Positions 2,143-25,368 of a stretch of 64,000 nucleotides of DNA are shown here, one piece after another. The stretch's first letter is position 1. The number at the start of each line of letters is the position of its first letter. The stretch comes from Limnohabitans sp. (GTDB lineage Bacteria > Pseudomonadota > Gammaproteobacteria > Burkholderiales > Burkholderiaceae_C). The position numbers and the translations under genes are program-made. Under the pieces are notes generated by a model. That model did not search any database. It saw only the letters and a list, made by a program, of their open reading frames with translations, and had not been told where the DNA came from. The stretch lies in the NCBI RefSeq assembly GCF_023910625.1, contig NZ_JAAVVW010000003.1, positions 1,426,001 to 1,490,000 on the forward strand, written 5' to 3'.

Positions 2143-2143
2143 A

Positions 2144-8631: not shown

Positions 8632-8649
8632 CACTCCAAAGCGCCACAA

Positions 8650-8976: not shown

Positions 8977-8987
8977 TCCGCAAGAAT

Positions 8988-9007
8988 CCCCGGCCCTCAG
9001 GCCGGGA
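8988..9007. terminator. Hairpin terminator after higA
   Basis: CCCGGCC-CTCA-GGCCGGG stem 13 bases after the higA stop, followed by AAAT; moderate strength. Confidence 0.5.
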
Positions 9008-9096
9008 AATGAGCATGCCGTCACTTCCATAGCGCTACCACCTATAAAAATAAAAAAACTTTCAGTTACGATCCAATCTCACTTTGTGAGTACCAA

Positions 9097-12573: not shown

Positions 12574-12581
12574 CAAAGAGT
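12574..12581. repeat. Right 8-bp target-site duplication of the ISL3 element
   Basis: Second copy of CAAAGAGT; the methyltransferase frame resumes at 12582. Confidence 0.9.
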
Positions 12582-13224: not shown

Positions 13225-13234
13225 GGAGTTAAAA

Positions 13235-14800
13235 GTGGCATTGCAGATACAAAACCTACGTACAACGAAGCAAAAGCTTATGGAGTGTGACGTAATGACA
13301 TTTGATAATCCAAATAAAAGTTTTACTTGGTTTACCCAGTCTATTCACGTTACTCGTTTTCGACATATTGTTAATCTCAATATCGAGTTCACTCATCCAA
13401 TTACAGCTATTGCCGGAGTCAACAGATCAGGCAAAACAAGCCTACTCTTACTAATGGCATGCAGCCACGAAAATTTTCTACGTCCAGATGCAACATCGTC
13501 AAGTATTGGTATACGTGAGCATGGATGGAATGATGTCCTATCCTTCACCTCACATGAAACTATCAACGCTGACTACCAATATGGAATGGAATGGAGGCAC
13601 GCTGCAAGAATTTTTCAAGGTACTGGAAAACGCCTGCATACCTCTCGTGCATGGAGTGGCATCGGAAAAAAGAGTTCAGACAATAAGCGCTCGAATGCAA
13701 AAATCCGTGGTCGTGAAGTACGATTCATTGACTTGGAACGCTTACTACCAGCGCGTGCATTTTCGGACTCACTACTTAGAAAAGCAAACACAGCAGCAGC
13801 CACTCCACTCAGGCAAGACATTGCCCAAGCGTTCTCATACATATTCGACACGCCAGTCACCTCGATTTCTGAGGCTGGGTGGCACCTAAATCGACGTTGT
13901 TTCGTCATTGAGCGTCCTGGAGTGGTGTACTCAACTTACAACGCTGCCACTGGTGAGGAGGCGGTGATCTACTTACTTAAGGATCTAATTGAAAGCCCGA
14001 AGAACAGCCTCATCTTGATTGAGGAAATAGAGGCGGGAATTCATCCTTCTGTTTTGAGAAAGGTGCTAGACATCGTCCATATAGTGTCATGGATCGACAA
14101 AAAACAAATAATTTTTACCACGCATTCACCAACAGCTTTTTCAGCCGTGGATGCAAAATCCCGCCGTTTTATTGAGAGCGTTAATGACCAATGGAGATGC
14201 TCATCTGGGATTTCGATGCAAGCGGCGAGTAGCAAGATGGACTCGGTAGCTCACCCTCTTGTCCAACTCTATTGCGAGGACGATCTCGCTCAATTCTTGA
14301 TCACTAAGCAAATCTTAGCGATTACAGAATCCGAGTCTCATGCACAGCGATTAATTAATGTGATTCCTTCAGGTCCAATTGATCAGGTTAAGAATGACTA
14401 CACAAGGCATCAACGGAACTTTAAACACCTTAGAGCAAAGCTCGGATTCTGTGCAGTCTTTGATGGTGACTACAAAAATGACTCGGCATACTCAAATTTT
14501 CACGAGAATGATAATGAATTTTCGGTGTTCATTTACCCCTACGACAAACCAGAGAAATTTCTAGTTCGTGCCTATTTGTCGACAAATCCAAACGGAAATC
14601 TAGAGGCGGCTCTAAGCCATATTGATCACCACACTCTTTTCAGCACAATGGTAGAACTTGGTCTTGCAGCGGATGCAAATGATGCGAGGAATCGTTGTTT
14701 TGAAGCGTTTAGCAATTCTCCGGAGTATCAAAAGCATTCAGAGGATCTACAGGCTTTAATAAAACGGGCAATTGCCCATTTCACCGCCCTGCCAGACTAG
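13235..14800 (+). CDS. OLD-like AAA ATPase with C-terminal TOPRIM-type domain
   Basis: 521 residues. An SMC/RecF-like ATPase has Walker A GVNRSGKTSLL (61-71), Walker B LILIEEIEAGIHP (about 258-270) and a following TTHSPTAFSA switch. The C-terminal half fits a TOPRIM nuclease: LYCEDDLAQFLI (near 345) for the first Glu and FCAVFDGDYKND (near 405) for the DxD pair. OLD-family proteins are anti-phage nucleases. The start is GTG 13235 after AGGGAGT; ATG 13265 and 13295 are alternatives. It follows the MmeI-like gene by 10 bases, probably as one operon. Base composition is visibly AT-richer than its neighbours, which suggests separate transfer. Confidence 0.75.
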   Translation: MALQIQNLRTTKQKLMECDVMTFDNPNKSFTWFTQSIHVTRFRHIVNLNIEFTHPITAIAGVNRSGKTSLLLLMACSHENFLRPDATSSSIGIREHGWNDVLSFTSHETINADYQYGMEWRHAARIFQGTGKRLHTSRAWSGIGKKSSDNKRSNAKIRGREVRFIDLERLLPARAFSDSLLRKANTAAATPLRQDIAQAFSYIFDTPVTSISEAGWHLNRRCFVIERPGVVYSTYNAATGEEAVIYLLKDLIESPKNSLILIEEIEAGIHPSVLRKVLDIVHIVSWIDKKQIIFTTHSPTAFSAVDAKSRRFIESVNDQWRCSSGISMQAASSKMDSVAHPLVQLYCEDDLAQFLITKQILAITESESHAQRLINVIPSGPIDQVKNDYTRHQRNFKHLRAKLGFCAVFDGDYKNDSAYSNFHENDNEFSVFIYPYDKPEKFLVRAYLSTNPNGNLEAALSHIDHHTLFSTMVELGLAADANDARNRCFEAFSNSPEYQKHSEDLQALIKRAIAHFTALPD

Positions 14801-14962
14801 CTGTCGGATCAGCCATACCCTTGCCCTTACCCTAAATCCAGCCGGTCCATCAGATATCTCACTGAACTTCTTGAATATGGGATTTTCCTATCCCATCCTG
14901 CACTCGCTTGGCAATACCGCATCAAGGGCCCATCACCTTGTCTGGTTAGCAACCTAAACCAT

Positions 14963-15235
14963 TCAGGACAGACACTCATAGGCTGTGCGGTAGCCCCCCA
15001 CCCCCTTCACATAATCCAACAACTCCACAAAAAACGGATGCCTGCAAAGCGTGGACGAATCGCCCACCAGCAGCAGCTTGCGCCGTGCGCGGGTCATGCC
15101 CACGTTCATGCGGCGGATGTCAGACAGGAAGCCGATCTCGCCTTGGGGGTTGCTGCGTGTCAAGGTGATGGCAGAGATGCCGCGCTCTTGGCCCTGAAAC
15201 GAATCGACGGTGCCCACGCTGAGCCTGCGTTGCAG
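14963..15235 (-). repeat. Helicase-tail repeat A (3' end of an SF1 helicase gene)
   Basis: The only copy with an open frame. It reads QRRLSVGTVDSFQGQERG, then GEIGFLSDIRRMNVGMTRAR, then LLLVGDSSTLCRHPFFVELL and ends YRTAYECLS. These are motifs V and VI and the tail of an UPF1/IGHMBP2-like SF1 helicase. Everything before motif V is absent. The right boundary, ...GCCTGCGTTGCAG, is the same base in copies A, B and C. Left of it (14801-14962) no gene is recognised. Confidence 0.85.
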
Positions 15236-15237
15236 GG

Positions 15238-15372
15238 TATTGGCGCAAACTTAAACAGCGGCTCAATGCGGAGGGCGGCCAACCTGTGACGTTTTGTCAC
15301 GGGTCGAAACTGGCGGCCTCAGACATCAGGGATCAGGCAAAGGGCTATCCACAAGCATGGATTGAAAAACGG
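15238..15372 (+). pseudogene. Fragment of a BRO-N/DinD-like antirepressor-type gene
   Basis: The frame from 15238 reads YWRKLKQRLNAEGGQPVT, then CHGSKLAASD, then QAKGYPQAWIEKRL. Both pieces occur in BRO-N/DinD-type phage antirepressor-like proteins but are normally about 60 residues apart, so the middle is deleted. It has no start codon and begins 3 bases after the helicase-tail boundary. It may be what the helicase fragment was joined to. The assignment is from memory of the family and is tentative. Confidence 0.45.
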
Positions 15373-16293
15373 CTATTGCCGTTTGAATCGCTCATCAAGC
15401 GCTTCGCGTTGAAGCTGGAATTTCGCAGGGTTTTTTGACTTCAGTTGGGTCAAATTCTGCAGTTTCCATTGGATGGCAGGCAATTCTTGCAAATGCTTGA
15501 ACGGCAGGAGCGACCAATCCGGTTTGGCTTCCAGCAGCGACAGAAGGAAATTTCTGTGATTTTGCGTGAGCGCCCGAGGAAGTTCGGCCATCAATCGTTG
15601 TTGGGTTTGGAGCAGATCATCCAAGTGGATGGGGTCTGAAGTCATTCCCACAAACTCGTTCTTGAAAGGCGCTTCCATTGGTTGAGCATTGGAAAACAAG
15701 ACCTCGTGCACGGGTCTGTTGTGCCCAGCCAGATAGGCCACAAAGCAGTCCAAAATTTCTTGCGTTAAGCCATGGCTTTCGTACATTTTGAGAACGTCGA
15801 AAAAATCGCGTGGATGCTGTCTGTCCATCGCTGCGACCAGTTTGCTGCCATAGAGTTCAGAGGGGGAGAGGACTGGAACCTGGATATTTTTGGAGAACAG
15901 GGCTTGTGTTTTTTCTGACAGTGAACGTGTCTGTATCGGTAGCACTGTTCCCCGAAAAACGAAGTTCACTTCAACCTTGACTGCAGCTTCTGCGCTGAAG
16001 ATGTCAAGCTTCACTTCGTCACCCCCTTGGACTTTCCTGGTTCGGGTTTCATAACCCATTGCAGCAATTGCTGCCTCAATGCGCTGCAGCTCTTGGGCGA
16101 TTTCTTTCAGTGCGTTGTCCCTGTCGGCTTGGTGGTTGATGAAGACGACGTCGATATCTACTGACAGTCGTGGCAAGTCCTGAACGAACAAGTTCAGTGC
16201 CGTGCCTCCCTTCATCGCAAATCGCGGGGTTTGAAACACGGCGGGTGCGATGTCCAGCAGCAGGTTGACCGTTTGTACGTAGGCGGGGTTCAT
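15373..16293 (-). CDS. abiEii: AbiEii-family nucleotidyltransferase toxin
   Basis: 306 residues of the AbiEii/AbiGii (DUF1814) family. The nucleotidyltransferase signature is KGGTALNLFVQDLPRLSVDIDVVF (about residues 28-51): a GG-T motif then D-x-D in the SxDID strand. A later conserved stretch is LSPSELYGSKLVAAMDRQHPRDFFDVLKMYE. Homologues act as toxins by adding nucleotides to RNA, and AbiE pairs stop phage growth. ATGA overlap with abiEi shows coupled translation. Confidence 0.92.
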   Translation of the reverse strand: MNPAYVQTVNLLLDIAPAVFQTPRFAMKGGTALNLFVQDLPRLSVDIDVVFINHQADRDNALKEIAQELQRIEAAIAAMGYETRTRKVQGGDEVKLDIFSAEAAVKVEVNFVFRGTVLPIQTRSLSEKTQALFSKNIQVPVLSPSELYGSKLVAAMDRQHPRDFFDVLKMYESHGLTQEILDCFVAYLAGHNRPVHEVLFSNAQPMEAPFKNEFVGMTSDPIHLDDLLQTQQRLMAELPRALTQNHRNFLLSLLEAKPDWSLLPFKHLQELPAIQWKLQNLTQLKSKNPAKFQLQREALDERFKRQ

Positions 16294-17030
16294 TTTTTGA
16301 GGTGAAGAATTTTTTTGTCCCTGGTCACAGCAACCCAGCGGCTTGCACTTCCGAGCCGTTCGTTGTGTTTCTTGGCGATCTCAAGCCAAGGTAAATCAAG
16401 GCTTTCGGCCAAGGCCTTGGCCAGTCGCACCACCTTGACACGTTTGGTGTGGGTCAGCAATGTGTCCATAACTTCCGGGCGCAGGTGCCGAGCGCTTTCA
16501 GCGACGTTCAAGGTTTCTTCCAGAGACTGGAGCTTGCCCGTGTCACTGAAGAGTTCCAGCAACGCTCTCTCCGGAACAGAAACCATCACTTTGGGGTGTC
16601 CTGCGGGTAGGGGTGCCAGGCCGAACCCTTTGGGCAGTGCGTCGTCAAAAATCCGGGTTGACTGGTAGTTGGCGTTGAACAGTTCTGTGAACCATGCGGG
16701 TAGCCGTGCCGCTTTGTGGCCCCATAAGTTCAAGCGCTCCTGATGGGCGAGGTTGTGGCGTGTTCCGCGCCAGGCCAAAGCGGTTTTGCCGCCAACATGC
16801 AATTGCGGAACCTCAAGCGACAGGTGCGCCAGTGTTTTGTTCATGTCCAATTTGGCGTTGGGCACTTGGTACACGCCGCGTCCCAATCTTTTGAGCCAGC
16901 CTGCCTGGGCCAAACGGGCCGCAGCCGTCGAATCCAAGCCCAGCGTCTGCAACTCGCGGGAACTGTATGGCGTGTCCCATTCGAGTTGGCTCAGCAGCTC
17001 TTTGATTGAAATATTTTTAGAAACTCTCAT
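16290..17030 (-). CDS. abiEi: AbiEi-family antitoxin/transcriptional repressor
   Basis: 246 residues. An N-terminal winged helix (SSRELQTLGLDSTAAARLAQAGWLKRLGRGVYQ, residues 22-55) is followed by the AbiEi antitoxin domain (HVGGKTALAWRG, RHNLAHQERLNLWG) and a C-terminal AbiEi_3-type region. AbiEi represses its own operon and neutralises AbiEii without needing a tight complex (type IV system). The start is ATG 17030. An inverted repeat lies just upstream. Confidence 0.92.
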   Translation of the reverse strand: MRVSKNISIKELLSQLEWDTPYSSRELQTLGLDSTAAARLAQAGWLKRLGRGVYQVPNAKLDMNKTLAHLSLEVPQLHVGGKTALAWRGTRHNLAHQERLNLWGHKAARLPAWFTELFNANYQSTRIFDDALPKGFGLAPLPAGHPKVMVSVPERALLELFSDTGKLQSLEETLNVAESARHLRPEVMDTLLTHTKRVKVVRLAKALAESLDLPWLEIAKKHNERLGSASRWVAVTRDKKILHLKK

Positions 17031-17047
17031 TTAAAGTGAACTATCTC

Positions 17048-17099
17048 AAATATTTCAAACATCGGCAAGAGTTCTGCAGGACATTTGTTTGAAATATTT
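17048..17099. promoter_or_regulatory. Inverted-repeat operator before abiEi
   Basis: AAATATTTCAAACA (17048-17061) and its exact complement TGTTTGAAATATTT (17086-17099) lie 24 bases apart, 18-69 bases upstream of the abiEi start. A related half-site (TTGAAGTATCTCAAACAT, 17130-17147) follows. AbiEi is known to bind paired inverted repeats before its own gene. Confidence 0.75.
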
Positions 17100-17191
17100 T
17101 AGAAAAACATCATTAGAAGTGAATTTCTTGAAGTATCTCAAACATCTGATGTCGAGTCTGCATTCAACCAGGCCAGTCTGTCTGGCTTCCT

Positions 17192-17481
17192 TCAGATCCG
17201 TTTGACCATCTCAACTGCCGTCCGGTAGCCCCCCCACGCCCTTCACATAAGCCAACAACTCCCCAAAAAACGGATGCCTGCAAAGCGTGGACGAATCGCC
17301 CACCAGCAGCAGCTTGCGCCGTGCGCGGGTCACGCCCACGTTCATGCGGCAGATGTCAGACAGGAAGCCAATCTCGGCCGATTTCGCCTTGGGGGTTGCT
17401 GCGCGTCAAGGTGATGGCAGAGATGCCGCGCTCTTGGCCCTGAAACGAATCGACGGTGCCCACGCTGAGCCTGCGTTTCAG
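17192..17481 (-). repeat. Helicase-tail repeat B
   Basis: Same fragment as repeat A, with the last codons YRTAVEMVKRI. It has a short extra stretch (about 10 bases, near 17374-17384) that breaks the frame and is shared with copy C but not with A. The right end is ...CCTGCGTTTCAG. The brnT promoter starts about 15 bases further right. Confidence 0.85.
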
Positions 17482-17495
17482 AATCAGGATATCAG

Positions 17496-17542
17496 CCATA
17501 CGAACGTATGGTTTTTTTTATGGCTTAATGCTACGATGAATC
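17496..17542 (+). promoter_or_regulatory. Operator and probable leaderless promoter of brnTA
   Basis: CCATACG-AA-CGTATGG (17496-17511) is a perfect palindrome suited to BrnA binding. A -10-like TACGAT (17532-17537) lies 5 bases before the brnT ATG, so a transcript would start at or near the AUG. No Shine-Dalgarno sequence is seen. Confidence 0.6.
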
Positions 17543-17833
17543 ATGACTGCAGCTCAATTCGAATGGGATGACATCAAGGATGCTGAAAACCAGGCCAAGC
17601 ATCAGGTGTCATTCCGGGACGCGCAGGCGGCATTTGCTGATCCGCACCGCGTGATCGCAAAAGACTTGGCGCACAGTGAAACCGAAGAGCGTTTTTACTG
17701 CATCGGCAAAGCGGGTGGCGGCATCTTGACGGTGCGCTTCACCTACAGACGCAAAGTCATTCGAATCATTGGGGCAGGCTATTGGCGTAAAGGAAAGGCA
17801 ATTTATGAAAAAGAAGATCGTTTACACGGATGA
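17543..17833 (+). CDS. brnT: BrnT-family ribonuclease toxin
   Basis: 96 residues, the usual length. FEWDDIKDAENQAKHQVSF near the start, then ERFYCIGKAGGGILTVRFTYR and a C-terminal IRIIGAGYWRKGKAIYE, are the strands of the RelE-like BrnT fold (DUF497). It cuts RNA and halts growth until bound by BrnA. The gene ends inside brnA, so the pair is translationally coupled. Confidence 0.93.
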   Translation: MTAAQFEWDDIKDAENQAKHQVSFRDAQAAFADPHRVIAKDLAHSETEERFYCIGKAGGGILTVRFTYRRKVIRIIGAGYWRKGKAIYEKEDRLHG

Positions 17834-18083
17834 GCCCATGGGCGATGTTGAGGTGGTTGCGGATTTTCTGCCGTCACCTGCCGAGCTGGCGTTCAAGGAA
17901 GATGGCGTGAAAGTCACGCTGGCCCTGAGCAAGAGCAGCGTGGAGTTTTTCAAGTCTGAGGCGACCAAGCACCACACCCAGTACCAGCGCATGATCCGCC
18001 GGTTGCTGGATTCATACGTCGAAGCTCAGGGCACCGCTGCAAGCAAGGCGAAACGCACAGTGCACAAGCGCGCAGCGATCTAG
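17805..18083 (+). CDS. brnA: BrnA-family antitoxin
   Basis: 92 residues from ATG 17805, preceded by AAAGGAAAGG; it overlaps brnT by 29 bases. MKKKIVYTDEPMGDVEVVADFLPSP opens the protein, followed by a ribbon-helix-helix part (VKVTLALSKSSVEFFKSEATKH, then YQRMIRRLLDSYVE). BrnA binds BrnT and represses the operon. The 3' end overlaps an antisense antitoxin-like gene by 72 bases, a sign of an untidy joint. Confidence 0.92.
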   Translation: MKKKIVYTDEPMGDVEVVADFLPSPAELAFKEDGVKVTLALSKSSVEFFKSEATKHHTQYQRMIRRLLDSYVEAQGTAASKAKRTVHKRAAI

Positions 18084-18437
18084 GTTTAACGAATCGCCCA
18101 CCGCACTGGCAAAACGTTGGACTGTTCGCATGGATGGCGTGCCCCTGCCACTTTCGATGCGTGCCACCACGCTTTGGGTCGTGCCCATGCGTGCGGCCAC
18201 ATCGCCTTGCGTCAGGCCGGCTTGCATGCGCGCTGCAATCAGTTCATGGGCCAGCTCATTCTCGGGCGCTTGTTCGTCATAGGCTTGGCGAACGGCGGGG
18301 TTGGCCAGCAGTTCGGCTTTCAGGTCTTTGATTGAAAGCCCCGCTTGGTCCATGCGGAACTTGATGGCTTCTACGGGGTCGGGCAAATCAATCGGATGGT
18401 GCTTGCGCTCATAGGCCTCAGTTAGATCCACTTTCAA
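18012..18437 (-). pseudogene. Mosaic Xre antitoxin gene (two antitoxin pieces joined), 3' end disrupted
   Basis: Starts at TTG 18437, overlapping the Fic stop. Residues 1-37 (LTEAYERKHHPIDLPDPVEA, then FRMDQAGLSIKDL) look like the N-terminus of a HigA-type protein. From residue 38 (KAELLANPAVRQAYDEQAPE, then GLTQGDVAARMGTTQSVVARIESGRG) it reads as a different short Xre antitoxin. After FASAVGDSLNL the sequence runs into the complement of brnA. A relative with the same second half is at 21005-21358. It might still act as a repressor, but the structure suggests a recombination product. Confidence 0.65.
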
Positions 18438-19639
18438 TCAACCGGTCTGTCGGCTGCCATGCTGGCTTTGCCCAACTTGGCATCGTCCTCGGCCCAGCCT
18501 TCCATCGCGGGGTAATACCGTGTTGATCGACCATCACCGTACCGGGTGAGCAGCCCCAGCCGTTCCAGATCGATGAGGTCTCGGGCGGCGGTGGGTGTTG
18601 AGGTTTGCGCAATCCGCTCGTGCTTGCGCGTCGTCATGCCGCCTTCGTAACCCTTGGGGCCAGCATCCAGCAGCTTCTTCATGGTTTTTTGCTGACGCTC
18701 ATTGAGCGAGACCGATGACATTTGGGTCTGAAACCGAATGCGCTGAATGGCCGAATCGATGGTGCGGTTGGCGAACTCACTGGCCAGCGTGACTTGCTCC
18801 AGCATCCATTCGACCCAAGCCGTCACGTCCATGCTTTTGGAGCGTTGTGCCCGCTCTAGCTCGCGGTAATACTGGTCTTTGCACGACTCGATTTGCCTGG
18901 ACAGCGTCACGATGCGTCCGGGCTGGCCCATGTCTTGGCCCAGTGCCAGTTGCAAGATGGCCCGGCCTAGACGACCGTTGCCATCGTCAAACGGGTGCAG
19001 CGTCTCGAACCACAGATGCGAGACAGCGGCACGCACCAAGCCGTCCATGGGCTGCGGCCCGACTTTGGGCTGGGTTTGGTTGAACCATTTCAAAAAAGCG
19101 TCCACTTGGCTAGCCAGGCCTTCAGCGGGTGGTGCGGCGTAATGCACCTTGCTGTGGCCCACGGCGCCGCTGACGATTTCCATGGGCACAGAGCGCAGTT
19201 CGCCCACATCAATGCGCTGCATGCCCGAAAACCCTGTCGGGAAAAGCGCCCCGTGCCAACTGCACAGCCTCTCCAGCGTCAATGGCGCGTCGGTGTTGAG
19301 GGTGGCGTCTTGCAGCACATCGATCAGTCCCTCGATGTTGCGCCAGCCTTCGCGCACGGGGGCACCAGACGTATCCAGCCCCAAGCGCCGGGCCACGGAT
19401 GAACGAACACTTTCGGGGTCCAGCTTCTCGCCTTCAATCGCTGAAGTGGTCAATGCCTCTTGTGTCAGAGAGTCGCGGATGTGGGGCTGTAAGCCTTCCA
19501 GGCCAATCGCCTCGGCTTTGCCAAGAAGAATTCCTTGGGATGTTCTTGCGGCCGCCAATGCCGCCTGGATTCGATGCGCGTCGAACGCCAATGCTGGCCA
19601 CTCTGGCAGCTGCCAAATCCAACGTTGATATGATTTCAT
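18434..19639 (-). CDS. Fic-family AMP-transferase-type protein with C-terminal winged helix
   Basis: 401 residues. N-terminal DUF4172-like region, then inhibitory motif TSAIEG (65-70), a complete Fic loop HPFDDGNGRLGR (215-226), and a C-terminal winged helix (ARDLIDLERLGLLTRYGDGRSTRYYP). All catalytic residues are present, so transfer of AMP or another nucleotide part to a protein is possible, held back by the built-in inhibitory helix. Unlike the Fic protein at 7093-8499 it keeps the catalytic His. It overlaps the following antitoxin-like gene. Confidence 0.93.
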   Translation of the reverse strand: MKSYQRWIWQLPEWPALAFDAHRIQAALAAARTSQGILLGKAEAIGLEGLQPHIRDSLTQEALTTSAIEGEKLDPESVRSSVARRLGLDTSGAPVREGWRNIEGLIDVLQDATLNTDAPLTLERLCSWHGALFPTGFSGMQRIDVGELRSVPMEIVSGAVGHSKVHYAAPPAEGLASQVDAFLKWFNQTQPKVGPQPMDGLVRAAVSHLWFETLHPFDDGNGRLGRAILQLALGQDMGQPGRIVTLSRQIESCKDQYYRELERAQRSKSMDVTAWVEWMLEQVTLASEFANRTIDSAIQRIRFQTQMSSVSLNERQQKTMKKLLDAGPKGYEGGMTTRKHERIAQTSTPTAARDLIDLERLGLLTRYGDGRSTRYYPAMEGWAEDDAKLGKASMAADRPVD

Positions 19640-19664
19640 GGCTTAATCATATCAATATATGATT
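19640..19664 (-). promoter_or_regulatory. Palindrome and near-leaderless promoter before the second Fic gene
   Basis: AATCATAT-CAAT-ATATGATT (19645-19664) is a perfect 8-bp inverted repeat. On the minus strand a TATGAT -10 box within this region ends 6 bases before ATG 19639, and no ribosome site is seen. The winged helix of the Fic protein or the adjoining Xre protein may bind here. Confidence 0.55.
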
Positions 19665-19747
19665 TGAATGGAATAAAAATCGTATCGTGCACGGTGTCAA
19701 GATCAATTCAGCTGTGGGTTTTTGTCTTGGACTGAATCAATTGCTGG

Positions 19748-20155
19748 GTGATCAAGTTTTTGGTCGACACCAACATCTTGGGCTACTTTGCGCGCAACAG
19801 CTCTGCCGCGCTGCAAAAGCGCATGTTGACGGCGCTCAAAAAGCAAGAAGTGGCTATCTCCGCCATCACCCGCGCCGAAACACGGTTTGGGCTGGCACTG
19901 CTGCAAGTCGATGACAAACGACGCCGAACCATCGATTTGCTGCTCAATGAGATTCCCGTGTTGCCATGGACACTGGAGGCCGCAGACCGCTATGGAGACA
20001 TTGCCGCCCACCTGCAGCAAACCGGGCAGCCCATTTGCGAAATGGACACCCAAATCGCCGCGCATGCATTGGCGCTGGGCCTGCCCTTGGTGACCCACAA
20101 CACACGGCACTTCAAGCGGGTGGCGGGTTTGAAGCTGGAAGACTGGATGGCTTGA
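19748..20155 (+). CDS. Orphan VapC-type PIN-domain ribonuclease
   Basis: 135 residues from GTG 19748. The PIN acidic residues are D7 (VDTNIL), E44 (ITRAETRFG) and D100 (CEMDTQIAAHAL), followed by THNTRHFKRV: a complete VapC set. No VapB is found upstream (19665-19747 holds no recognisable antitoxin) and none downstream. It is either controlled by an antitoxin elsewhere or weakly expressed. No clear ribosome site is seen at the GTG. Confidence 0.88.
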   Translation: MIKFLVDTNILGYFARNSSAALQKRMLTALKKQEVAISAITRAETRFGLALLQVDDKRRRTIDLLLNEIPVLPWTLEAADRYGDIAAHLQQTGQPICEMDTQIAAHALALGLPLVTHNTRHFKRVAGLKLEDWMA

Positions 20156-20167
20156 TCTTTAACCTAT

Positions 20168-20195
20168 TTGCCAAATAAACCTACTTGGTTATAAT
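20168..20195 (+). promoter_or_regulatory. mqsRA promoter and operator
   Basis: TTGCCA (20168-20173) and TATAAT (20190-20195) with 16-bp spacing. AACC-TACTT-GGTT (20178-20190) between them resembles the MqsA operator (AACCT-N-AGGTT). The -10 ends 5 bases before the codon where MqsR homology begins, so the mRNA would be leaderless or nearly so. Confidence 0.65.
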
Positions 20196-20200
20196 TTGCC

Positions 20201-20503
20201 ATAGAGAAAAGTACCCCTCACTGCAAGCTGGCCGTTGTCCATGCGTTGGTCGAGGGTGGTCATGTCAGGGCGACAACAAGCGCGTTCGGTGGTGCTCTTG
20301 AGCTTGGCATCAGCGACTTGGCCGGAATGTGTGCAGTCGTCATGTCTCTGACCTCTGCCAACTTCTACAAGAGCATGACGACACATGCGGATCACCGGAT
20401 TTGGCAGGACGTGTACCACGCCAAGACCCCCAACGGCGCTGAGGTGTATCTCAAGCTGACTGTTATCGACGACGTTTTAATTGTTTCATTCAAGGAGCTG
20501 TGA
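20201..20503 (+). CDS. mqsR: MqsR-family mRNA interferase toxin, non-standard start codon
   Basis: The frame reads (I)EKSTPHCKLAVVHALVEGG, then TSANFYKSMTTHADHRIWQD and DVLIVSFKEL, a full-length match to MqsR (about 100 residues). The codon at the homologous start is ATA (20201-20203), not ATG. A TTG at 20246 could start a shorter form lacking 15 residues. Either the start was lost, which would silence the toxin, or the leaderless message starts at AUA. MqsR cuts mRNA mainly at GCU. It overlaps nothing; mqsA begins 3 bases after its stop. Confidence 0.85.
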   Translation: MEKSTPHCKLAVVHALVEGGHVRATTSAFGGALELGISDLAGMCAVVMSLTSANFYKSMTTHADHRIWQDVYHAKTPNGAEVYLKLTVIDDVLIVSFKEL

Positions 20504-20505
20504 CC

Positions 20506-20907
20506 ATGAAATGCCCATGCTGTGGAGCGGCTGAACTGATCCACGATACCCGCGACATACCCTATGTCTACAAGGGCGAAAGCACCGCCATTCCCGACGT
20601 GACGGGTGATTTTTGTCCTGCCTGCGGCGAAGTCGTCTTGAACCGCGAACACGGTGACCGATACAGCGAGTTGCTTGCGGTGCATCAAAGGCAAGTGAAC
20701 GCTGCTTATGTTGACCCCAGCTACATTGCCAAAGTGCGCAAGAAGCTCGACTTGGACCAACGTGAAGCGGCCGATATTTTTGGCGGTGGCGTGAATGCGT
20801 TTTCTCGCTACGAGAACGGCAAGACCAAACCACCGCTGGCCTTGGTTAAGTTGCTCAAGGTACTGGATCGCCACCCCGATTTGCTAAACGAAGTCAGAGC
20901 GGCGTAA
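20506..20907 (+). CDS. mqsA: MqsA-family antitoxin/repressor
   Basis: 133 residues from ATG 20506 behind AAGGAG. An N-terminal zinc-binding part has CPCC (residues 3-6) and CPAC; the C-terminal Xre domain has VRKKLDLDQREAADIFGGGV, then NAFSRYENGKTKPP, the MqsA DNA-binding signature. It binds MqsR and represses the operon through AACC/GGTT sites. Gene order toxin-antitoxin is normal for this family. Confidence 0.95.
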   Translation: MKCPCCGAAELIHDTRDIPYVYKGESTAIPDVTGDFCPACGEVVLNREHGDRYSELLAVHQRQVNAAYVDPSYIAKVRKKLDLDQREAADIFGGGVNAFSRYENGKTKPPLALVKLLKVLDRHPDLLNEVRAA

Positions 20908-21004
20908 CGCCCTTCATTGATCTGGCAGAGGATTTGCGCACTGGTGGATTGGCGCAGCACCGCACGGATCAAGATGTTGTCGATCCTGAACGATCGCTCA
21001 AAAC

Positions 21005-21358
21005 TCATGTTGCTTTGGATTTGGGATTCTTGGGGGTTTGGGCACGTTGTCGTGCCGCATTGAAATCAGCAACGACGGCGTCCACATCAACACCCTTAAC
21101 CGCAAGCAGACGATCCAGCGTTTTGCTCGCTTTTTGAATCGAGGCAACATCGGTATCGCCTTGCATCAGGTCTCCTTGCGTGCGTGCTGCAATCAGTTCA
21201 CGGGCCAGCTCAAACTCGGACGCTTGTGCGTCATAGGCTTGGCGAACGGCGGGGTTGGCCAGCCGTTCGGCTTTCAGGTCTTTCAGGCTTTTCACGTCGA
21301 CTCCTCCTTTGTCTGACGAATCAATCGCATGGTGCTTTTGCTCATAGGCCTCAATCAA
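21005..21358 (-). pseudogene. Degenerate Xre/HigA-like antitoxin mosaic
   Basis: From TTG 21358 it reads LIEAYEQKHHAID, then a damaged part, then SLKDLKAERLANPAVRQAYD and FELARELIAARTQGD. It is a close relative of 18012-18437 (both DNA and protein are clearly similar over about 110 bp), but the helix-turn-helix that should follow is replaced by DVASIQKASKTLDRLLAVKG and a basic tail. Upstream it is fused to the end of the relE fragment. It is probably not functional. Confidence 0.55.
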
Positions 21359-21395
21359 GGTCGAGAGCACATCTAGGCGTGCGCCTTCGGGTGAG

Positions 21396-21503
21396 TCAGG
21401 CGATGCGCTCGTCCATGAAGTCAACGATGCGCCGCGCCGTCTGTTTGTCGAGCTTGCGCAGCTGACCTTTGGCCGTATCGGCGTATTCAATTGTCCAGGC
21501 CAA
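21396..21503 (-). pseudogene. Truncated RelE/ParE toxin (first 35 codons)
   Basis: Starts TTG 21503, overlapping the antitoxin's end, and reads AWTIEYADTAKGQLRKLDKQ, then ARRIVDFMDERIA, the opening strand and helix pair of RelE toxins. TGA at 21396-21398 ends it; the catalytic C-terminal half is gone. The deletion joint leads into the antitoxin mosaic at 21005-21358. Confidence 0.8.
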
Positions 21504-21714
21504 GGTCTCGTCTCACATCGGGAGCGGAATGGACCGGTTCTTTCCCTTGACGGACACGAGCAAGCACATCGGCAGCGAGGTAGTAGTCTTCCATTTCTTG
21601 GATGCCCTGCTCGATGATTTCGCGCAGGTAAAAGGCCTTGGTGCGACCAGTTTGGGATGCGAGGTAGTCAAGCCTTTGCTCGGTCTCTGGGGCAAGACGA
21701 ATTGAAGTTGCCAT
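21487..21714 (-). CDS. RelB/StbD-type ribbon-helix-helix antitoxin
   Basis: 75 residues: MATSIRLAPETEQRLDYLA, then GRTKAFYLREIIEQGIQEME is the ribbon-helix-helix; the C-terminus (EDYYLAADVLARVRQGKEPV, then RRDLGLDN) is the toxin-binding arm. AAGGA before ATG 21714 and a palindromic operator upstream are intact, but the toxin it guards against is cut short. Coupling to the toxin by overlapping stop and start is still visible. Confidence 0.9.
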   Translation of the reverse strand: MATSIRLAPETEQRLDYLASQTGRTKAFYLREIIEQGIQEMEDYYLAADVLARVRQGKEPVHSAPDVRRDLGLDN

Positions 21715-21728
21715 ATCAAATCCTTCAC

Positions 21729-21744
21729 TGAATACATGTATTCA
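21729..21744. promoter_or_regulatory. Palindromic operator before the RelB-type antitoxin
   Basis: TGAATACATGTATTCA is a perfect 16-bp palindrome ending 15 bases upstream of the antitoxin start. Confidence 0.7.
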
Positions 21745-21749
21745 ATGTA

Positions 21750-22043
21750 TCACAGCGGGCTTATTTTGGCCATCTCACGCGCCGTACGGTAGCCCCCACC
21801 CCCTTCACATACGTCAGCATCTCCACAAAAAACGGATGCCTGCAAAGCGTGGACGAGTCGCCCACCTGCAGCAGCTTGCGCCGTGCGCGGGTCATGCCCA
21901 CGTTCATGCGGCGGATGTCAGACAGGAAGCCAATCTCGGCCGATTTCGCCTTGGGGGTTGCTGCGCGTCAAGGTGATGGCAGAGATGCCGCGCTCTTGGC
22001 CCTGAAACGAATCGACGGTGCCCACGCTGAGCCTGCGTTGCAG
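21750..22043 (-). repeat. Helicase-tail repeat C
   Basis: Same fragment as A and B with the frame-breaking 10-base insert of B, but with single-base features shared with D (GTCAGCATCTCC, GAGTCGCCCACCTGCAG). The right end is again ...GCCTGCGTTGCAG. The left end comes within 6 bases of the RelB operator. Confidence 0.85.
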
Positions 22044-22113
22044 CAGCGGGTCAGCACACAGCCGTCAAATGTATTGACCCAGCGGAAAGTTCTGTTTGCC
22101 GCTCAAGATGGAT

Positions 22114-22142
22114 TTGACACCATATGTCTTTAAGTCCATAAT
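22114..22142 (+). promoter_or_regulatory. Strong promoter with leaderless start before the RelE/Xre pair
   Basis: TTGACA (22114-22119), 17-bp spacer, CATAAT (22137-22142). The toxin ATG is at 22149, seven bases after the -10 box begins to end, which is where transcription should start. The message would have no leader and no ribosome site is present. Confidence 0.75.
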
Positions 22143-22148
22143 TTTGCA

Positions 22149-22538
22149 ATGACTTGGACTGTTCTGTTTCACGACGCCTTCGACGCTGAGTTCGAAGCTT
22201 TGGTCGAGGAGCTTCAAGACGAACTTTTGGCACATGCCAAGTTGCTGGCTGCGTTTGGTCCTGATTTGGGGAGGCCTACTGTCGATACCCTGAAGGGTTC
22301 ACGACACAGCAACATGAAGGAACTTCGGTTTTCCTGGAATGGTCAGGTTTGGCGAGTGGCCTTTGCCTTCGATCCCCGCCGACAAGCCATCTTGCTTGTG
22401 GGTGGAGATAAAGGTGGGGCAGATCAGCGCAGGTTTTACAAGCGCTTACTCATGGTGGCCGATGCGCGTTACGACGATCATCTGGGCACTTTGAGTCAAT
22501 CAACCAAGGAGTCCAAAAATGGCAAGAAAACTCGATGA
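22149..22538 (+). CDS. RelE/HigB-superfamily toxin (phage Gp49-like)
   Basis: 129 residues. FHDAFDAEFEALVEELQDEL, then GRPTVDTLKGSRHSNMKELR, then WRVAFAFDPRRQAILLVGGDKGG and FYKRLLMVADARYDDHL match the Gp49-like HigB branch of RelE toxins, which cut mRNA on ribosomes. Basic residues R84, R88 and K100-type positions expected for cleavage are present. It overlaps the antitoxin gene by 20 bases. Confidence 0.92.
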   Translation: MTWTVLFHDAFDAEFEALVEELQDELLAHAKLLAAFGPDLGRPTVDTLKGSRHSNMKELRFSWNGQVWRVAFAFDPRRQAILLVGGDKGGADQRRFYKRLLMVADARYDDHLGTLSQSTKESKNGKKTR

Positions 22539-22872
22539 CGTGATGGCTGCGCTGCCCAAAGATCGCAAAAAACGGGTAGAGGATCGGGCCATGGAGTTGG
22601 CGACACTCAAAGACCTTCGCCATGCAGCTCAGCAAACACAAGAGCAAATGGCTGCCGCCTTGGGGGTGCGTCAGGACACCATTTCTCGTTTGGAAAAGCG
22701 CAGCGACATGCTGCTTTCAACGATGCGCCACTATGTGGAGAGCATGGGCGGTAAGCTGGAACTGGTGGCCAAGTTTCCTGATCGCCCGTCCGTGGTGATC
22801 GACCACTTGGGAGGTGAAGTCACCCTCAACAAGCGCGCAGGTGCTGCTCGCCGATCACGGGCAGCGGCCTAG
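22519..22872 (+). CDS. Xre-family antitoxin of the RelE/HigB pair
   Basis: 117 residues. After a charged N-terminal helix (LPKDRKKRVEDRAMEL) comes a helix-turn-helix (TQEQMAAALGVRQDTISRLEKRSD, about 40-63) and a short tail (MGGKLELVAKFPDRPSVVID) typical of antitoxins paired with Gp49-like toxins. It neutralises the toxin and represses the operon. The start ATG 22519 has AAGGAG upstream within the toxin gene. Confidence 0.92.
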   Translation: MARKLDDVMAALPKDRKKRVEDRAMELATLKDLRHAAQQTQEQMAAALGVRQDTISRLEKRSDMLLSTMRHYVESMGGKLELVAKFPDRPSVVIDHLGGEVTLNKRAGAARRSRAAA

Positions 22873-22948
22873 TTGCCAACTGGGGTACAACTTGTACCCC
22901 CCTTGCGCTGCAAGCCTCTGACGGCAAACAGCTCGAAAGCGGGCACCT

Positions 22949-23104
22949 TTAGGCCATCTCATGCGCCGTACGGTAGCCCCCCACCCCCTTCACATACGTC
23001 AGCATCTCCACAAAAAACGGATGCCTGCAAAGCGTGGACGAGTCGCCCACCTGCAGCAGCTTGCGCCGTGCGCGGGTCATGCCCACGTTCATGCGGCGGA
23101 TGTC
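22949..23104 (-). repeat. Helicase-tail repeat D (short)
   Basis: Starts like C (codons YRTAHEMA and stop) but ends at 23104 within SDIRRMNVG, about 130 bases earlier than the others, where unrelated sequence follows (reading GKNACVFSNAPGYSGTHSA in the same frame). The frame is open. MazEF lies to its right. Confidence 0.85.
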
Positions 23105-23280
23105 TGATGCCGAATGTGTGCCCGAATAGCCGGGCGCATTGCTGAACACGCAAGCGTTTTTGCCCACCTGAAACAAGTGCAGGGACTTTTTCGTCACAAT
23201 GATGTGGTCACATTGTTACAACGCTAGGTCTTGCCCATCCACTTCGCATGGATTAACATTGTTGCAACTGGAGGATTATC

Positions 23281-23535
23281 ATGGAAATTGCAATTCGGAA
23301 CATCGGAAACAGCAAAGGCGTGGTGTTGCCTAAGCCGTTTCTAGCCCAGGTCGGGCTGGACGGACAGGCCACAGCCACCATCGAAGTGGAAAACGGCTCC
23401 ATCGTGTTGCGAAAGCCGGCCAAGTCCGTGCGTGCTGGCTGGGCAGCGGCTGCCGCAGCCGTTTCCGCCAAAGGTGGTGATGCGCTTTTGATGGGTGAGT
23501 TCGGCAACTTGGACGATGAGGAGTTGGGCTGGTGA
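23281..23535 (+). CDS. mazE: MazE-family antitoxin
   Basis: 84 residues. The AbrB/MazE swapped-hairpin DNA-binding domain is MEIAIRNIGNSKGVVLPKPF, then GQATATIEVENGSIVLRKP; the C-terminal arm is acidic (DALLMGEFGNLDDEELGW) and binds MazF. GGAGG lies 6 bases before ATG 23281, so unlike the other modules here this one has a strong ribosome site. It overlaps mazF by 4 bases. Confidence 0.94.
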   Translation: MEIAIRNIGNSKGVVLPKPFLAQVGLDGQATATIEVENGSIVLRKPAKSVRAGWAAAAAAVSAKGGDALLMGEFGNLDDEELGW

Positions 23536-23849
23536 AGCGCGGCGACATTTGGCTGGTGAACCTGGACCCGACCGTGGGCAGCGAAATCAAGAAGTCGCGG
23601 CCCTGCGTTGTGATGTCACCGGCGGAGTTGAATGACAACCTGCGAACCGTGATGGTGGCACCCATGACCTCCAAGGGTTTTGCCGCGCCGTTCCGGGTGC
23701 CTGTCACCCACGCTGGAACCAAGGGTTTGATCGTGTTGGATCAGCTTCGGACGGTTGACAAGCTGCGCTTGGTCAAGCGGCTGGGCGCTGTGTCAGCCAA
23801 GACGTTGACTGCCGCATTGACCACGCTGCAAGAAGTGTTTGCGGAGTAA
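23532..23849 (+). CDS. mazF: MazF-family mRNA interferase
   Basis: 105 residues from GTG 23532. KRGDIWLVNLDPTVGSEIKK, then RPCVVMSP, then MVAPMTSKG and GLIVLDQLRTVDKLRLVKRL give the complete MazF/PemK fold, including the Arg in RPCVV and the Thr in VAPMT used in RNA cutting. The 3' end abuts a broken transporter gene on the other strand. Confidence 0.95.
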   Translation: MKRGDIWLVNLDPTVGSEIKKSRPCVVMSPAELNDNLRTVMVAPMTSKGFAAPFRVPVTHAGTKGLIVLDQLRTVDKLRLVKRLGAVSAKTLTAALTTLQEVFAE

Positions 23850-24133
23850 GAGGGCAACAGAATGATGACCAAACCGCCTTCAAAACCGGCCCCGTGGGCC
23901 AGCCGCCGGACAAAGGAACGGCCGCGCACCGATTGGCGCGACTCCCAGCGCTCAAAGAGCCAGTTGAATGCGTAATTCCACGTCAGCGCAATGCTCGACA
24001 AAACAACCGCCAGGCCCAATGTGGAAGCGGGCGACTTGTCAAAGGCCAGGCTCAACACGGGTCCGACCACGGCGATGGCGATGGCCTCTTACAAAAGGGC
24101 CTGAAGAACACGGCGGGTGGTGGGGGTCATCAT
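23850..24133 (-). pseudogene. PACE-family (BTP-domain) efflux transporter, nonsense mutation and lost 3' half
   Basis: From ATG 24133 the minus strand reads MMTPTTRRVLQALL, then TAA, then EAIAIAVVGPVLSLAFDKSP, LTWNYAFNWLFERWE and FEGGLVIILLP. This is the first bacterial transmembrane pair of a PACE/chlorhexidine-type exporter with a stop in place of a Tyr codon (LLYEA) at codon 15. The second half is missing where it meets mazF. No function expected. Confidence 0.8.
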
Positions 24134-24183
24134 GGGGAACGCGGTGGAGAGTGCGGTGAGGTGGGCGGCAAGGCGTGCAGGCC

Positions 24184-24435
24184 TCAAGAAGGCAACACGT
24201 CCTGCTCTTCAGGCGCTTGCCCGCCTTGACGGCTTAAGAATGCCAATGCGGCATTCACATCGCCACGTTGGGCACGTTGGGCAAAGTAGTCGGCTGTTTT
24301 CATGGCCGAGAGTTTTTCTGCCACGGCACTGACAATGAATTGGTTCAAGGTTGTGCCGTCTTCACGGGCTAGTTGCTCTGCCCCTGCCTTTAACGACAGC
24401 GGCAAACGCAGGGCGTAATTGCTTTGAGTTCCCAT
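24184..24435 (-). CDS. Arc/HicB-like ribbon-helix-helix antitoxin-type protein
   Basis: 83 residues: NYALRLPLSLKAGAEQLA, then DGTTLNQFIVSAVAEKLSAM is a ribbon-helix-helix; the C-terminus (FLSRQGGQAPEEQDVLPS) is short and acidic. AAGGAG precedes ATG 24435. Such proteins usually pair with a VapC or HicA toxin, but the next gene on this strand is the broken transporter, so it is another orphan. Confidence 0.8.
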   Translation of the reverse strand: MGTQSNYALRLPLSLKAGAEQLAREDGTTLNQFIVSAVAEKLSAMKTADYFAQRAQRGDVNAALAFLSRQGGQAPEEQDVLPS

Positions 24436-24522
24436 ATCAGGCTCCTTGAAAAAATTGCCGTGGTGTCATGACACCGATTCCGAACTTGGTCAAATGCTGG
24501 CCCGTGTCCATGAATCCCGAGT

Positions 24523-25368
24523 TCACTGCCGCGCCGTGCGCACATTGGGTGGCAACTTGCCCGGGGCGCTGGTACGCCAGGGGTTGATGTCCAGCCCGCC
24601 GCGCCGGGTGTAGCGGGCATACACCGTGAGCTGGGTGGGTTTGCAGCGCGTCCAGATGTCCATGAAGATGCGCTCGACGCATTGCTCATGAAACTCGTTG
24701 TGGTTGCGGAAACTCACGATGTATTGCAGCAAGCCCGCTTGCTCGATCTGCGGGCCGCTGTAGGTGATTTGCACGCTGCCCCAGTCAGGCTGGCCGGTGA
24801 CCAGGCAATTGCTTTTGAGCAAGTGGCTGACCAGGGTTTCGCTCACGGGCAGTTCGTCGGTCTTGGCGCTCAAAAGGTCCGGCGCAGGCTCGTAACGGGT
24901 GCACTCGATGTCCATGCGGTCCAGGTTCAGGCCGTCGAGCTCGTGCACAGGTTCGGCGTCAAATTGCTCTTGCAACAGCAGCTTCACCCCCACGCTGGCT
25001 TGCACCGCGCCGCCGTGCCAGATGGCGGCGCTGATGTCGCGGCGGATCATGTCGCGCACCACGTCGGCACTGTCCAAGCGGGTGTTGTTGAAGCTGTTCA
25101 GATACAGCTTGAAGGACTTGCTCTCCACGATGTGCGTGCTCTCGGCAGGCACGGTGATGTGCGCCAGCGCCACCTGCGGCTTGCCTTTGGTGTTGAGCCA
25201 GGACAGCTCAAACGCGGTCCACAAGTCGGCCCCAAAAAACACGGGCTGGCCGGTGACGCCGATCTCGGCGCGTTTGGTGGCGCGGGGAATGGGGAACAGC
25301 AAACCCGCATCGTACTGGTCTACATAGGCGCTGGACTTGCCCAGTTGCGATTGCTCTGGAGAGTTCAT
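24523..25368 (-). CDS. queF: NADPH-dependent 7-cyano-7-deazaguanine reductase, long form
   Basis: 281 residues, the two-domain form. [20 protein letters not shown] and the QueF motif [17 protein letters not shown] lie in the first half; the catalytic Cys is in [18 protein letters not shown] in the second half, with [13 protein letters not shown] near the end. It reduces preQ0 to preQ1 for queuosine in tRNA. Coupled to yaaA by an ATGA overlap. Confidence 0.96.

What the first reader, a model, noticed from the sequence alone, without database searches (positions are those of the whole stretch)
14963..23104. Four copies of one helicase gene tail separate toxin-antitoxin cassettes
The last 150-290 bp of an SF1 helicase gene (motifs V-VI to the stop) occur at 14963-15235, 17192-17481, 21750-22043 and 22949-23104, all in the same orientation, while the helicase body is absent. 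Between or beside them sit AbiE; BrnTA plus Fic, VapC, MqsRA and RelBE remains; a RelE/Xre pair; and MazEF. Copies A, B and C share exactly the same inner boundary (...GCCTGCGTTGCAG). B and C share a 10-base frame-breaking insert, while C and D share other changes, so the copies did not arise by one simple tandem duplication. A gene 3' end used repeatedly as a joining point for toxin cassettes would be a cassette-collecting hotspot without an integrase in view. Mechanism is inference.
Basis: partly seen in the sequence, partly recalled or inferred. Interest (0 to 1): 0.88.

Follow-up and report, generated by a model that had tools for sequence, protein, structure and literature searches.

The report
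Helicase-tail repeats shuffle toxin-antitoxin cassettes
In freshwater Limnohabitans bacteria, copies of the end of one helicase gene separate toxin-antitoxin genes in an array whose contents and order differ from strain to strain, which looks like gene-cassette shuffling by ordinary homologous recombination instead of by an integrase.

Summary
In detail: four same-strand copies of an SF1 helicase 3' end lie at 14963-23104, with no other match in this genome. It is not a one-genome oddity: 33 of 59 same-genus relatives match the tail, 16 of 59 two or more times. The usual layout is a full helicase gene between queF and an enoyl-CoA hydratase gene, followed by partial tails separated by mostly toxin-antitoxin (TA) cassettes. 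About a dozen cargo types recur in shuffled order: 25 distinct neighbour pairs across a tail, 4 in both orders. Copy D is the helicase itself with its body deleted. Copy C is a mosaic of B-like and D-like parts, so crossovers occur inside the tail. Joins of cargo to tail recur identically in many strains. No tyrosine-recombinase match lies within about 80 kb, as far as contigs reach, in 12 of 12 genomes. Best reading: an integrase-independent TA cassette array in which a helicase tail serves as homology adapter for RecA-type recombination between strains. Eight literature searches listed no such description. New variant of a known kind: like Rhs/MafB/T6SS orphan arrays in geometry, like integrons in behaviour.

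The parts
22949..23191 (-). Copy D: relic of the helicase gene itself; N-terminal remnant (about 23121-23191) next to the C-terminal tail (22949-23107), body deleted
   Evidence: blastn/tblastx against full helicases; tail match 99% to copy C over 143 bases
21750..22043 (-). Copy C of the helicase tail; mosaic of a B-like 5' part and a D-like 3' part; homology starts at -257
17192..17481 (-). Copy B of the helicase tail, 10-base insert shared with C; starts at -253
14963..15235 (-). Copy A of the helicase tail, open frame of 84 aa (AAA_12); starts at -253
22149..22872 (+). Cassette gamma: Gp49/RelE-type toxin and HTH antitoxin, between tails D and C
   Evidence: Pfam PF05973; PF13560, with PF13744 just below its cut-off; recurs at 96-98% in other Limnohabitans arrays
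21005..21714 (-). Degraded cassette pieces: antitoxin-sized ORF (21487-21714) and HigA/Xre-like remnant related to the alpha cassette (21005-21490)
   Evidence: no Pfam hit; matches other arrays; repeat families D3/D5; names by eye
20246..20907 (+). MqsRA pair
   Evidence: PF15723, PF15731; also in L110, L135, L170
19748..20155 (+). PIN/VapC toxin = half of cassette beta (the antitoxin half is missing here)
   Evidence: PF01850; 408 of 821 bases of beta
18012..19639 (-). Xre-type HTH protein (18012-18437) and Fic protein with DUF4172 (18434-19639)
   Evidence: PF01381, PF13776, PF02661
17543..18083 (+). Cassette zeta: BrnT toxin and partner antitoxin-sized ORF (the partner has no Pfam hit)
   Evidence: PF04365; recurs in L040, L057, L109, L119
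15373..17030 (-). Cassette eta: AbiEi/AbiEii between tails B and A
   Evidence: PF11459/PF17194, PF08843; recurs in L097, L103
23281..23849 (+). MazEF, upstream of the helicase relic in gene direction, not bounded by two tails
   Evidence: PF04014 (below cut-off), PF02452; similar position in other loci
405..24523 (.). Whole variable island between the enoyl-CoA hydratase gene (4-405) and queF (24523-25368); in five relatives the matches to these two genes are about 12-30 bases apart
   Evidence: queF named from its sequence (recalled, not from a family search)

Best explanation
This is a toxin-antitoxin cassette array maintained and shuffled by homologous recombination between copies of the last about 260 bases of a helicase gene (plus its short 3' flank). 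In Limnohabitans a full, selected SMUBP2/HCS1-like SF1 helicase gene sits in the queF-enoyl-CoA-hydratase hotspot. Early on, a piece of its 3' end became joined downstream of a neighbouring TA pair (probably the alpha/HigBA-like pair), giving helicase-TA-tail. From then on, any [cargo + tail] unit could enter the array by one crossover in a tail (a circle) or by crossovers in two flanking tails (linear donor DNA), always leaving an intact helicase end in front. It could leave again by crossover between two tails. Further TA cargo was added by rare illegitimate joins and then travelled with its join. TA addiction presumably slows loss. In the present genome the helicase body was later deleted. 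Shown: array, shared cargo, shuffled order, in-tail mosaic, cross-strain similarity, recurring joins, no integrase match nearby. Inferred: RecA, natural transformation as the route, order of founding events, TA stabilisation.
For: Full helicase followed by partial same-strand tails with cargo between. 33 of 59 same-genus relatives match the tail, 16 of 59 two or more times (at most 7 candidates scored per genome; a few matches are short or weak). 25 distinct ordered neighbour pairs across a tail in 30 occurrences, four pairs in both orders. Beta: 15 of 15 matches in 80 genomes lie in a helicase/tail locus; gamma: 6 of 6 near-full-length copies do (at most 6 candidates scored per genome). Cassettes are more alike between strains than queF in 21 of the 24 comparisons that had queF, and than the helicase body in 21 of the 24 that had it (31 comparisons in all). 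Copy C agrees with B in its 5' part (18/19, 60/60, 59/60 columns and the shared 10-base insert) and with D in its 3' part (17/18, 60/60, 58/58, 18/19), where B-C falls to 57/60 and 52/58; the insert was found only in this genome. The left cassette predicts the tail only at -160..-121 (p 0.01, not corrected for eight tests) and not further in (0.82, 0.57, 0.40), as expected if crossovers fall throughout the tail. The tail has the lowest correlation with the rest of the helicase gene of eight windows (rho 0.675 against 0.725-0.878). PF00589: no match within about 80 kb of the array in 12 of 12 genomes, as far as contigs reach; PF00239: no match in G000, G501, G055, G007, and none within about 170 kb of the array on the same contig in the other 8. 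Helicase median dN/dS 0.13 over 540 pairs of 36 genes. ComEC-type competence gene present in this genome.
Against: RecA dependence and DNA uptake are untested; ComEC is common (10 of 14 control genomes) and weak evidence. No right-cassette linkage was found in any segment (p 0.28, 0.15, 0.85, 0.45), so only one side of the linkage prediction is seen, and the one positive p of 0.01 would not survive a strict correction. Partial tails are somewhat closer than average to their own genome's helicase (mean rank 0.29; 2 of 22 strictly closest); this fits import plus some local exchange but is not decisive. Three of six beta comparisons were not more similar than queF. Several different cargo ends meet the tail within a few bases of -257/-253, and no cassette-bounding tail in the set reaches beyond -275; a founder junction plus derivatives can explain this, but I did not prove it. 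One locus (L056) has a longer, about 600-base helicase 3' piece near a contig end, preceded by what reads by eye as a transposase end; I take it as an interrupted helicase gene.
Confidence: 0.7

Rival explanations
1. Site-specific cassette system: an unseen recombinase acting in trans recognises the helicase 3' end (or the -257 edge) as an attachment site, as IntI does with attC, and inserts cargo plus tail.
For: Left joins fall in a narrow zone around the stop codon (0 to about +52, read by eye) for many cargo types, and several right joins fall near -257. Usually one tail per cassette, same orientation.
Against: Left joins are not one nucleotide (0, +13, +16, +25, about +52); right joins at -257, -228, -161 and others. 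The mosaic copy C crosses over inside the tail. A fixed crossover at the 3' edge predicts left-cassette linkage through the whole tail, which is not seen. No PF00589 match near the array, no PF00239 match in this genome.
Confidence: 0.13
2. Homology-facilitated illegitimate recombination at every addition: incoming DNA pairs with the helicase on one side and joins illegitimately on the other, displacing the recipient's helicase 3' end each time (as proposed for V. cholerae T6SS arrays).
For: Gives exactly helicase - new cargo - displaced tail; explains variable right joins and clean helicase ends. The model is described in PMC5361080 (passages read).
Against: The same right join recurs in many strains (beta|-161, epsilon|-228, alpha|-257), so many moves re-used existing units. 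In the set no cassette-bounding tail reaches more than 275 bases in from the end of the 2 kb gene, which is not expected of many independent joins. It probably made the first units but not most of the shuffling.
Confidence: 0.12
3. Tandem duplication of the helicase followed by decay, with TA genes inserted later by chance in a defence island.
For: Copy D is a decayed full gene. The locus is a hotspot that also holds restriction and other defence-like genes.
Against: Cassette-bounding copies do not extend beyond about -275, the same cargo-tail joins recur, and only 2 of 22 tails are closest to the helicase of their own genome.
Confidence: 0.03
4. Tandem accretion of degenerate integrative elements that target the helicase 3' end and have lost their integrases.
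For: Repeats in direct orientation at a gene 3' end are typical of such elements (recalled family knowledge).
Against: No mobility gene among the cassette proteins run against Pfam; the cargo is mostly single TA operons; no match of the tail-plus-gamma query in 50,697 phage records, and only the TA part, without tail, in 9 of 72,556 plasmid records; no helicase relative in the viral contigs scanned.
Confidence: 0.04

Closest known systems
Orphan effector/immunity arrays of V. cholerae T6SS, and Rhs / CdiA / MafB C-terminal cassette arrays (PMC5361080 and PMC4287609: passages read; PMC3967940 and PMC3150448: seen only in a search listing)
   Same: Full gene followed by displaced 3'-end pieces with small toxin-related genes between; exchange between strains by homologous recombination without a dedicated integrase
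   Different: There the repeated gene is the toxin or effector and its variable end is the cargo. Here the repeated piece is the conserved end of a helicase and the cargo is mostly complete, unrelated TA operons in either orientation
Sedentary chromosomal integrons with TA cassettes (PMC11023631: passages read; PMC11551772: search listing)
   Same: A recombination sequence per cassette, same orientation, shuffled order, TA-rich cargo
   Different: No integrase match next to the array; the repeat is up to about 260 bases of a protein-coding gene; right joins vary; crossovers appear to spread through the repeat
Integrase-less recombination hotspots between core genes (PMC5635113: abstract and passages read)
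   Same: Hotspot between two core genes, high turnover, homologous recombination suggested
   Different: Recombination there is proposed in flanking core genes; here the homology is carried inside the island as a repeated adapter
Repeat-bordered merodiploids formed by transformation in S. pneumoniae (PMC3784515: abstract and section list read)
   Same: Repeats plus incoming DNA with the repeat give duplications by unequal crossing-over
   Different: Those are 100-900 kb duplications, not a cassette array

Membership tests
Integron / gene-cassette array | Integrase IntI next to the array | tested here: not met
   No PF00589 match within about 80 kb of the array in 12 of 12 genomes, as far as contigs reach
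Integron / gene-cassette array | attC sites as the repeat | tested here: inconclusive
   The repeat is the coding end of an SF1 helicase of variable length, unlike attC; no attC model was run
Integron / gene-cassette array | A recombination sequence per cassette, shuffled order | tested here: met
   some intervals hold several cargo types (works like, not membership)
Rhs/MafB/T6SS-type orphan 3'-end array | Full-length gene followed by displaced 3' fragments in the same orientation | tested here: met
Rhs/MafB/T6SS-type orphan 3'-end array | Displaced fragments encode alternative toxic C-termini with immunity genes | tested here: not met
   Fragments are the conserved helicase end; cargo is independent, mostly TA genes
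Homologous-recombination hotspot (Oliveira type) | Variable interval between two core genes that adjoin in other genomes | tested here: met
   queF and enoyl-CoA hydratase matches about 12-30 bases apart in G001, G006, G012, G020, G424; 24.1 kb apart in the window
Homologous-recombination hotspot (Oliveira type) | Raised recombination at the homology used | tested here: inconclusive
   The tail has the weakest correlation with the rest of the helicase gene and copy C is mosaic; flanking core genes were not tested
Tandem integrative elements at a gene 3' end | Integrase carried by at least one element | tested here: not met
   (12 genomes); cassette proteins
Mokosh defence system (MkoA helicase) | Full-length MkoA | tested here: not met
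   The 679-aa helicase matches MkoA positions 560-1081 of 1112 in the best model
Mokosh defence system (MkoA helicase) | Partner gene next to the helicase | not tested
   No search for a partner was made

The most novel reading that the evidence does not exclude
The helicase tail is a true attachment site of a so far unknown cassette-capture system, perhaps served by a trans-acting recombinase or by the helicase itself, so that Limnohabitans has an integron-like platform evolved independently of IntI/attC.
Probability: 0.1. Interest if true: 0.93.

Novelty: new variant of a known kind. Interest (0 to 1): 0.7.

Why it matters
If right, it shows how a gene-cassette reservoir can form with housekeeping recombination alone: one accidental duplication of a gene end makes a homology adapter, and TA modules then accumulate and circulate through a genus. 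It makes a general question testable: can TA islands and integrase-less hotspots be driven by internal repeats? Limnohabitans isolates with different arrays at one locus are already sequenced.

Tried and rejected
Plain tandem duplication: rejected because cassette-bounding tails stop at about -275 and the same cargo-tail joins recur across strains. One precise left joint at ..ACGGC|: seemed so at first, but more loci gave joins at 0, +13, +16, +25 and about +52, so it was dropped. Independent origin of all joins near -257: weakened after seeing that alpha, gamma, one delta and the baeRF cassette share the end of the alpha antitoxin gene just before the tail; the zeta end looks similar by eye only, and the AbiE join remains unexplained. 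Within-genome homogenisation of tails as a rule: not seen, though copy C is a clear local case. Phage or plasmid carriage: no tail unit found. Cargo names: delta is a Bro-N protein (PF02498) and one cargo is a baeRF family 3 protein; neither is a known TA pair to my knowledge, so 'TA array' is not true of every cassette. Calling the alpha pair HigBA-like rests on its HTH hit and on my reading of the toxin ORF; the HigBA-like pair of L116 was named by eye. Greek names are mine.

Limits of the counts. The loci are partly redundant and partly chosen because they hold a tail or a cassette; I dropped duplicates by hand (8 loci). The 27 of 76 loci with at least one partial tail is therefore not a population frequency; use for that. 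Three tail matches on other contigs (in G022, G039, G046) were not fetched. L056 was fetched but not in the set; it was looked at. L146 holds a helicase piece that begins at a contig edge. One search timed out and was replaced. Literature searches showed only the top of longer lists (10 listed of 27, 142, 56 and 52 papers).
Full report
CHECK OF THE OBSERVATION. The four tails are present at the stated places, all on the minus strand. A search of the window's own genome (3,168,237 bases, 3 contigs; 40 of 48 candidates scored) with copy C finds exactly these four places. Copy A matches AAA_12 (PF13087, E 3.5e-19). Against a full helicase gene, copy D has two aligned blocks: gene bases about 241-312, then about 1872-2026. 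D is thus the helicase gene with most of its body deleted, and A-C are partial tails.

WHERE IT LIES. A helicase search of named genomes gave 63 loci; 28 of the 63 titles name Limnohabitans (isolates include II-B4, 15K, II-D5, 2KL-1, G3-2, Bal53, WS1, DM1, T6-5, 2KL-51, Jir72, B9-3, Rim28), and many others are unplaced Burkholderiales or Comamonadaceae MAGs. Unnamed same-genus genomes have contigs of the same length as these isolates (for example G035:C5 and L. parvus II-B4, 439,744 bases), so I infer that the window is Limnohabitans. In the window, queF (24523-25368, named from its sequence) and an enoyl-CoA hydratase gene (4-405; PF00378) bracket 24.1 kb. In five same-genus genomes without the helicase (G001, G006, G012, G020, G424) the matches to the two genes lie about 12-30 bases apart, and in three closer ones (G361, G037, G021) about 2.9-4.5 kb apart. 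Of 16 relatives given to, 15 have no helicase match; G017 has a contig piece covering residues 1-588.

THE GENUS-WIDE ARRAY. With the 266-base tail as query, 33 of 59 same-genus relatives have matches, 16 of 59 two or more; a few are short or weak (G024, G031, G050). Five of 40 other-family genomes have only 26-43-base pieces (at most 7 candidates scored per genome). In the family, the tail peptide finds 8 of 399 genomes, all of other genera, with a 73-91% relative, one copy each, besides 3 same-genus ones; 10 more match at 42-48%, as other helicases would. In 21 of the 33 stretches fetched a reading frame of 664-762 codons, counted stop to stop, ends in the tail. Downstream, where further tails exist, they follow in the same direction, 0.2-4.7 kb apart. 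The helicase is SMUBP-2-like (PF13086, PF13087; best solved relative SMUBP-2, 4b3g) and under purifying selection (median dN/dS 0.13, 540 pairs among 36 genes).

THE CARGO. Recurrent cassettes: alpha (toxin-like ORF plus Xre antitoxin), beta (PIN toxin plus MazE/AbrB-like antitoxin, the latter below its Pfam cut-off), gamma (Gp49 plus HTH), delta (Bro-N protein), epsilon and zeta (BrnT pairs), AbiE, MqsRA, Fic, a HigBA-like pair, an RHH-like piece and a baeRF family 3 protein. Example orders in helicase direction (H helicase, t tail): DM1 (L107) H gamma t beta t alpha t; T6-5 (L109) H zeta t gamma t baeRF t; L126 H delta t gamma t beta Fic; L168, a single-contig genome, H epsilon t Fic t beta t baeRF t; L116 H epsilon t HigBA-like alpha t; L040 t delta t alpha t zeta t. 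Over the set, 30 neighbour relations across a tail comprise 25 distinct ordered pairs, four in both orders.

THE CARGO BELONGS TO THE ARRAY. In 80 same-genus genomes, beta gave 15 matches and all 15 lie in a helicase or tail locus. Gamma gave 15 matches: 6 of 6 near-full-length copies lie in such loci, as do two partial ones (G044, G513). Five weaker partial matches (77-87%) were fetched and have no tail, and two (G508, G052) were not fetched (at most 6 candidates scored per genome). In plasmids only the TA part of the gamma query matches, without tail, in 9 of 72,556 records; in phages nothing matches; in viral contigs no helicase relative was confirmed. The TA genes themselves thus have relatives in the common pool, and the tail unit looks like a Limnohabitans feature.

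HOW IT MOVES. (a) Cassettes are more alike between strains than queF in 21 of 24 comparisons that had queF; the three exceptions are all beta. Seven more had no queF. Against the helicase body the count is also 21 of 24. (b) Copy C of the window agrees with B in its 5' part, including a 10-base insert, and with D in its 3' part. The insert is found in no other genome held, by exact string, so the exchange probably happened in this lineage. (c) Across 43 partial tails and 49 full ends, tails with the same left cassette are more alike only in the 5'-most segment tested, -160..-121 (p 0.01), not at -120..-81, -80..-41 or -40..0 (0.82, 0.57, 0.40); the right cassette predicts nothing (0.28, 0.15, 0.85, 0.45) (eight tests, uncorrected). 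A fixed crossover at either edge would keep the whole tail linked to one neighbour, so this favours crossovers spread over the tail. The power on the right side is unknown. (d) Among eight windows (two overlap) along 41 full genes, the last 255 bases have the lowest rank correlation with the rest (0.675; others 0.725-0.878). (e) Only 2 of 22 partial tails are strictly closest to their own genome's helicase (mean rank 0.29, where 0.5 is random). (f) Joins of cargo to tail recur: beta at -161 in L057, L107/L171, L137, L168, L170, L179; epsilon at about -228 in L046, L106, L116, L168; alpha near -257 in many; alpha without tail in L143, L119, L117 and L174 shows what can lie beyond the join.

NO RECOMBINASE IN VIEW. 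Tyrosine recombinases (PF00589) occur in all 12 genomes tested but none lies within about 80 kb of the array on the same contig (nearest: G055; in G025 the array is 1.5 kb from a contig end). Serine recombinases (PF00239) gave no match in G000, G501, G055 and G007 and none within about 170 kb of the array on the same contig in the other 8. A trans-acting enzyme is not excluded. The genome has a ComEC-type gene, which permits but does not show natural transformation.

WHAT IS SHOWN AND WHAT IS INFERRED. Shown: repeat, helicase parent, empty site, shuffled cargo, inter-strain sharing, mosaic tail, no recombinase match nearby. Inferred: RecA as agent, DNA uptake as route, alpha as founder, TA addiction as stabiliser. 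Open: why several cargo ends meet the tail within a few bases of -257/-253 and no cassette-bounding tail in the set exceeds about -275; a single founder tail with later deletions would explain most of it. L056 (G059) has a longer helicase 3' piece, about 600 bases, near a contig end and next to what reads as a transposase end; I take it as an interrupted gene.

LITERATURE. Eight searches listed no description of this array; the two Limnohabitans searches returned 3 and 6 papers, unrelated by title. Four of the searches had longer hit lists of which I saw only the top 10. Nearest models: T6SS immunity arrays with homologous and homology-facilitated illegitimate recombination (PMC5361080, passages), MafB cassettes (PMC4287609, passages), integrase-less hotspots (PMC5635113, passages), TA cassettes in integrons (PMC11023631, passages), merodiploids by transformation (PMC3784515, abstract). 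The library holds open-licence papers only, so absence there is weak evidence of novelty.

Noticed in passing
window 9097-13224: A type IIG (MmeI-like) restriction-methylation gene is interrupted by an ISL3-family insertion (transposase 11275-12504); both halves remain in view.
   Followed up: partly
window 17001-17146: Two 63-base imperfect copies (75% direct, also partly inverted) just upstream of AbiEi, possibly its operator.
   Followed up: no
window 18201-18420 and 21155-21353: Second repeat family: pieces related to the alpha HTH antitoxin occur twice in the same orientation and could serve as a further homology adapter.
   Followed up: partly
L109:14500-15666, L168:7313-8533: A baeRF family 3 protein (archaeo-eukaryotic release-factor-like) rides as cargo among TA cassettes; a possible clue to a translation-related toxin or defence role.
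   Followed up: no
L126:12076-12999: A Bro-N domain protein of 307 aa recurs as a cassette (delta) without an evident partner.
   Followed up: no
L102 and L103: Two genomes with identical helicase bodies (1680 bases compared) carry different arrays; a natural pair for studying recent exchange.
   Followed up: no
L110, L152: Records titled Akkermansia muciniphila MAG carry this Limnohabitans-type locus, so the label is probably wrong.
   Followed up: no
window 3736-4035 and 7093-8499: Further TA-like genes in the same island: Phd/YefM antitoxin and a second Fic protein.
   Followed up: no
L056, helicase direction, first 730 bases: About 600 bases of helicase 3' end follow what reads as the end of a transposase near a contig end; probably an interrupted helicase gene.
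   Followed up: partly
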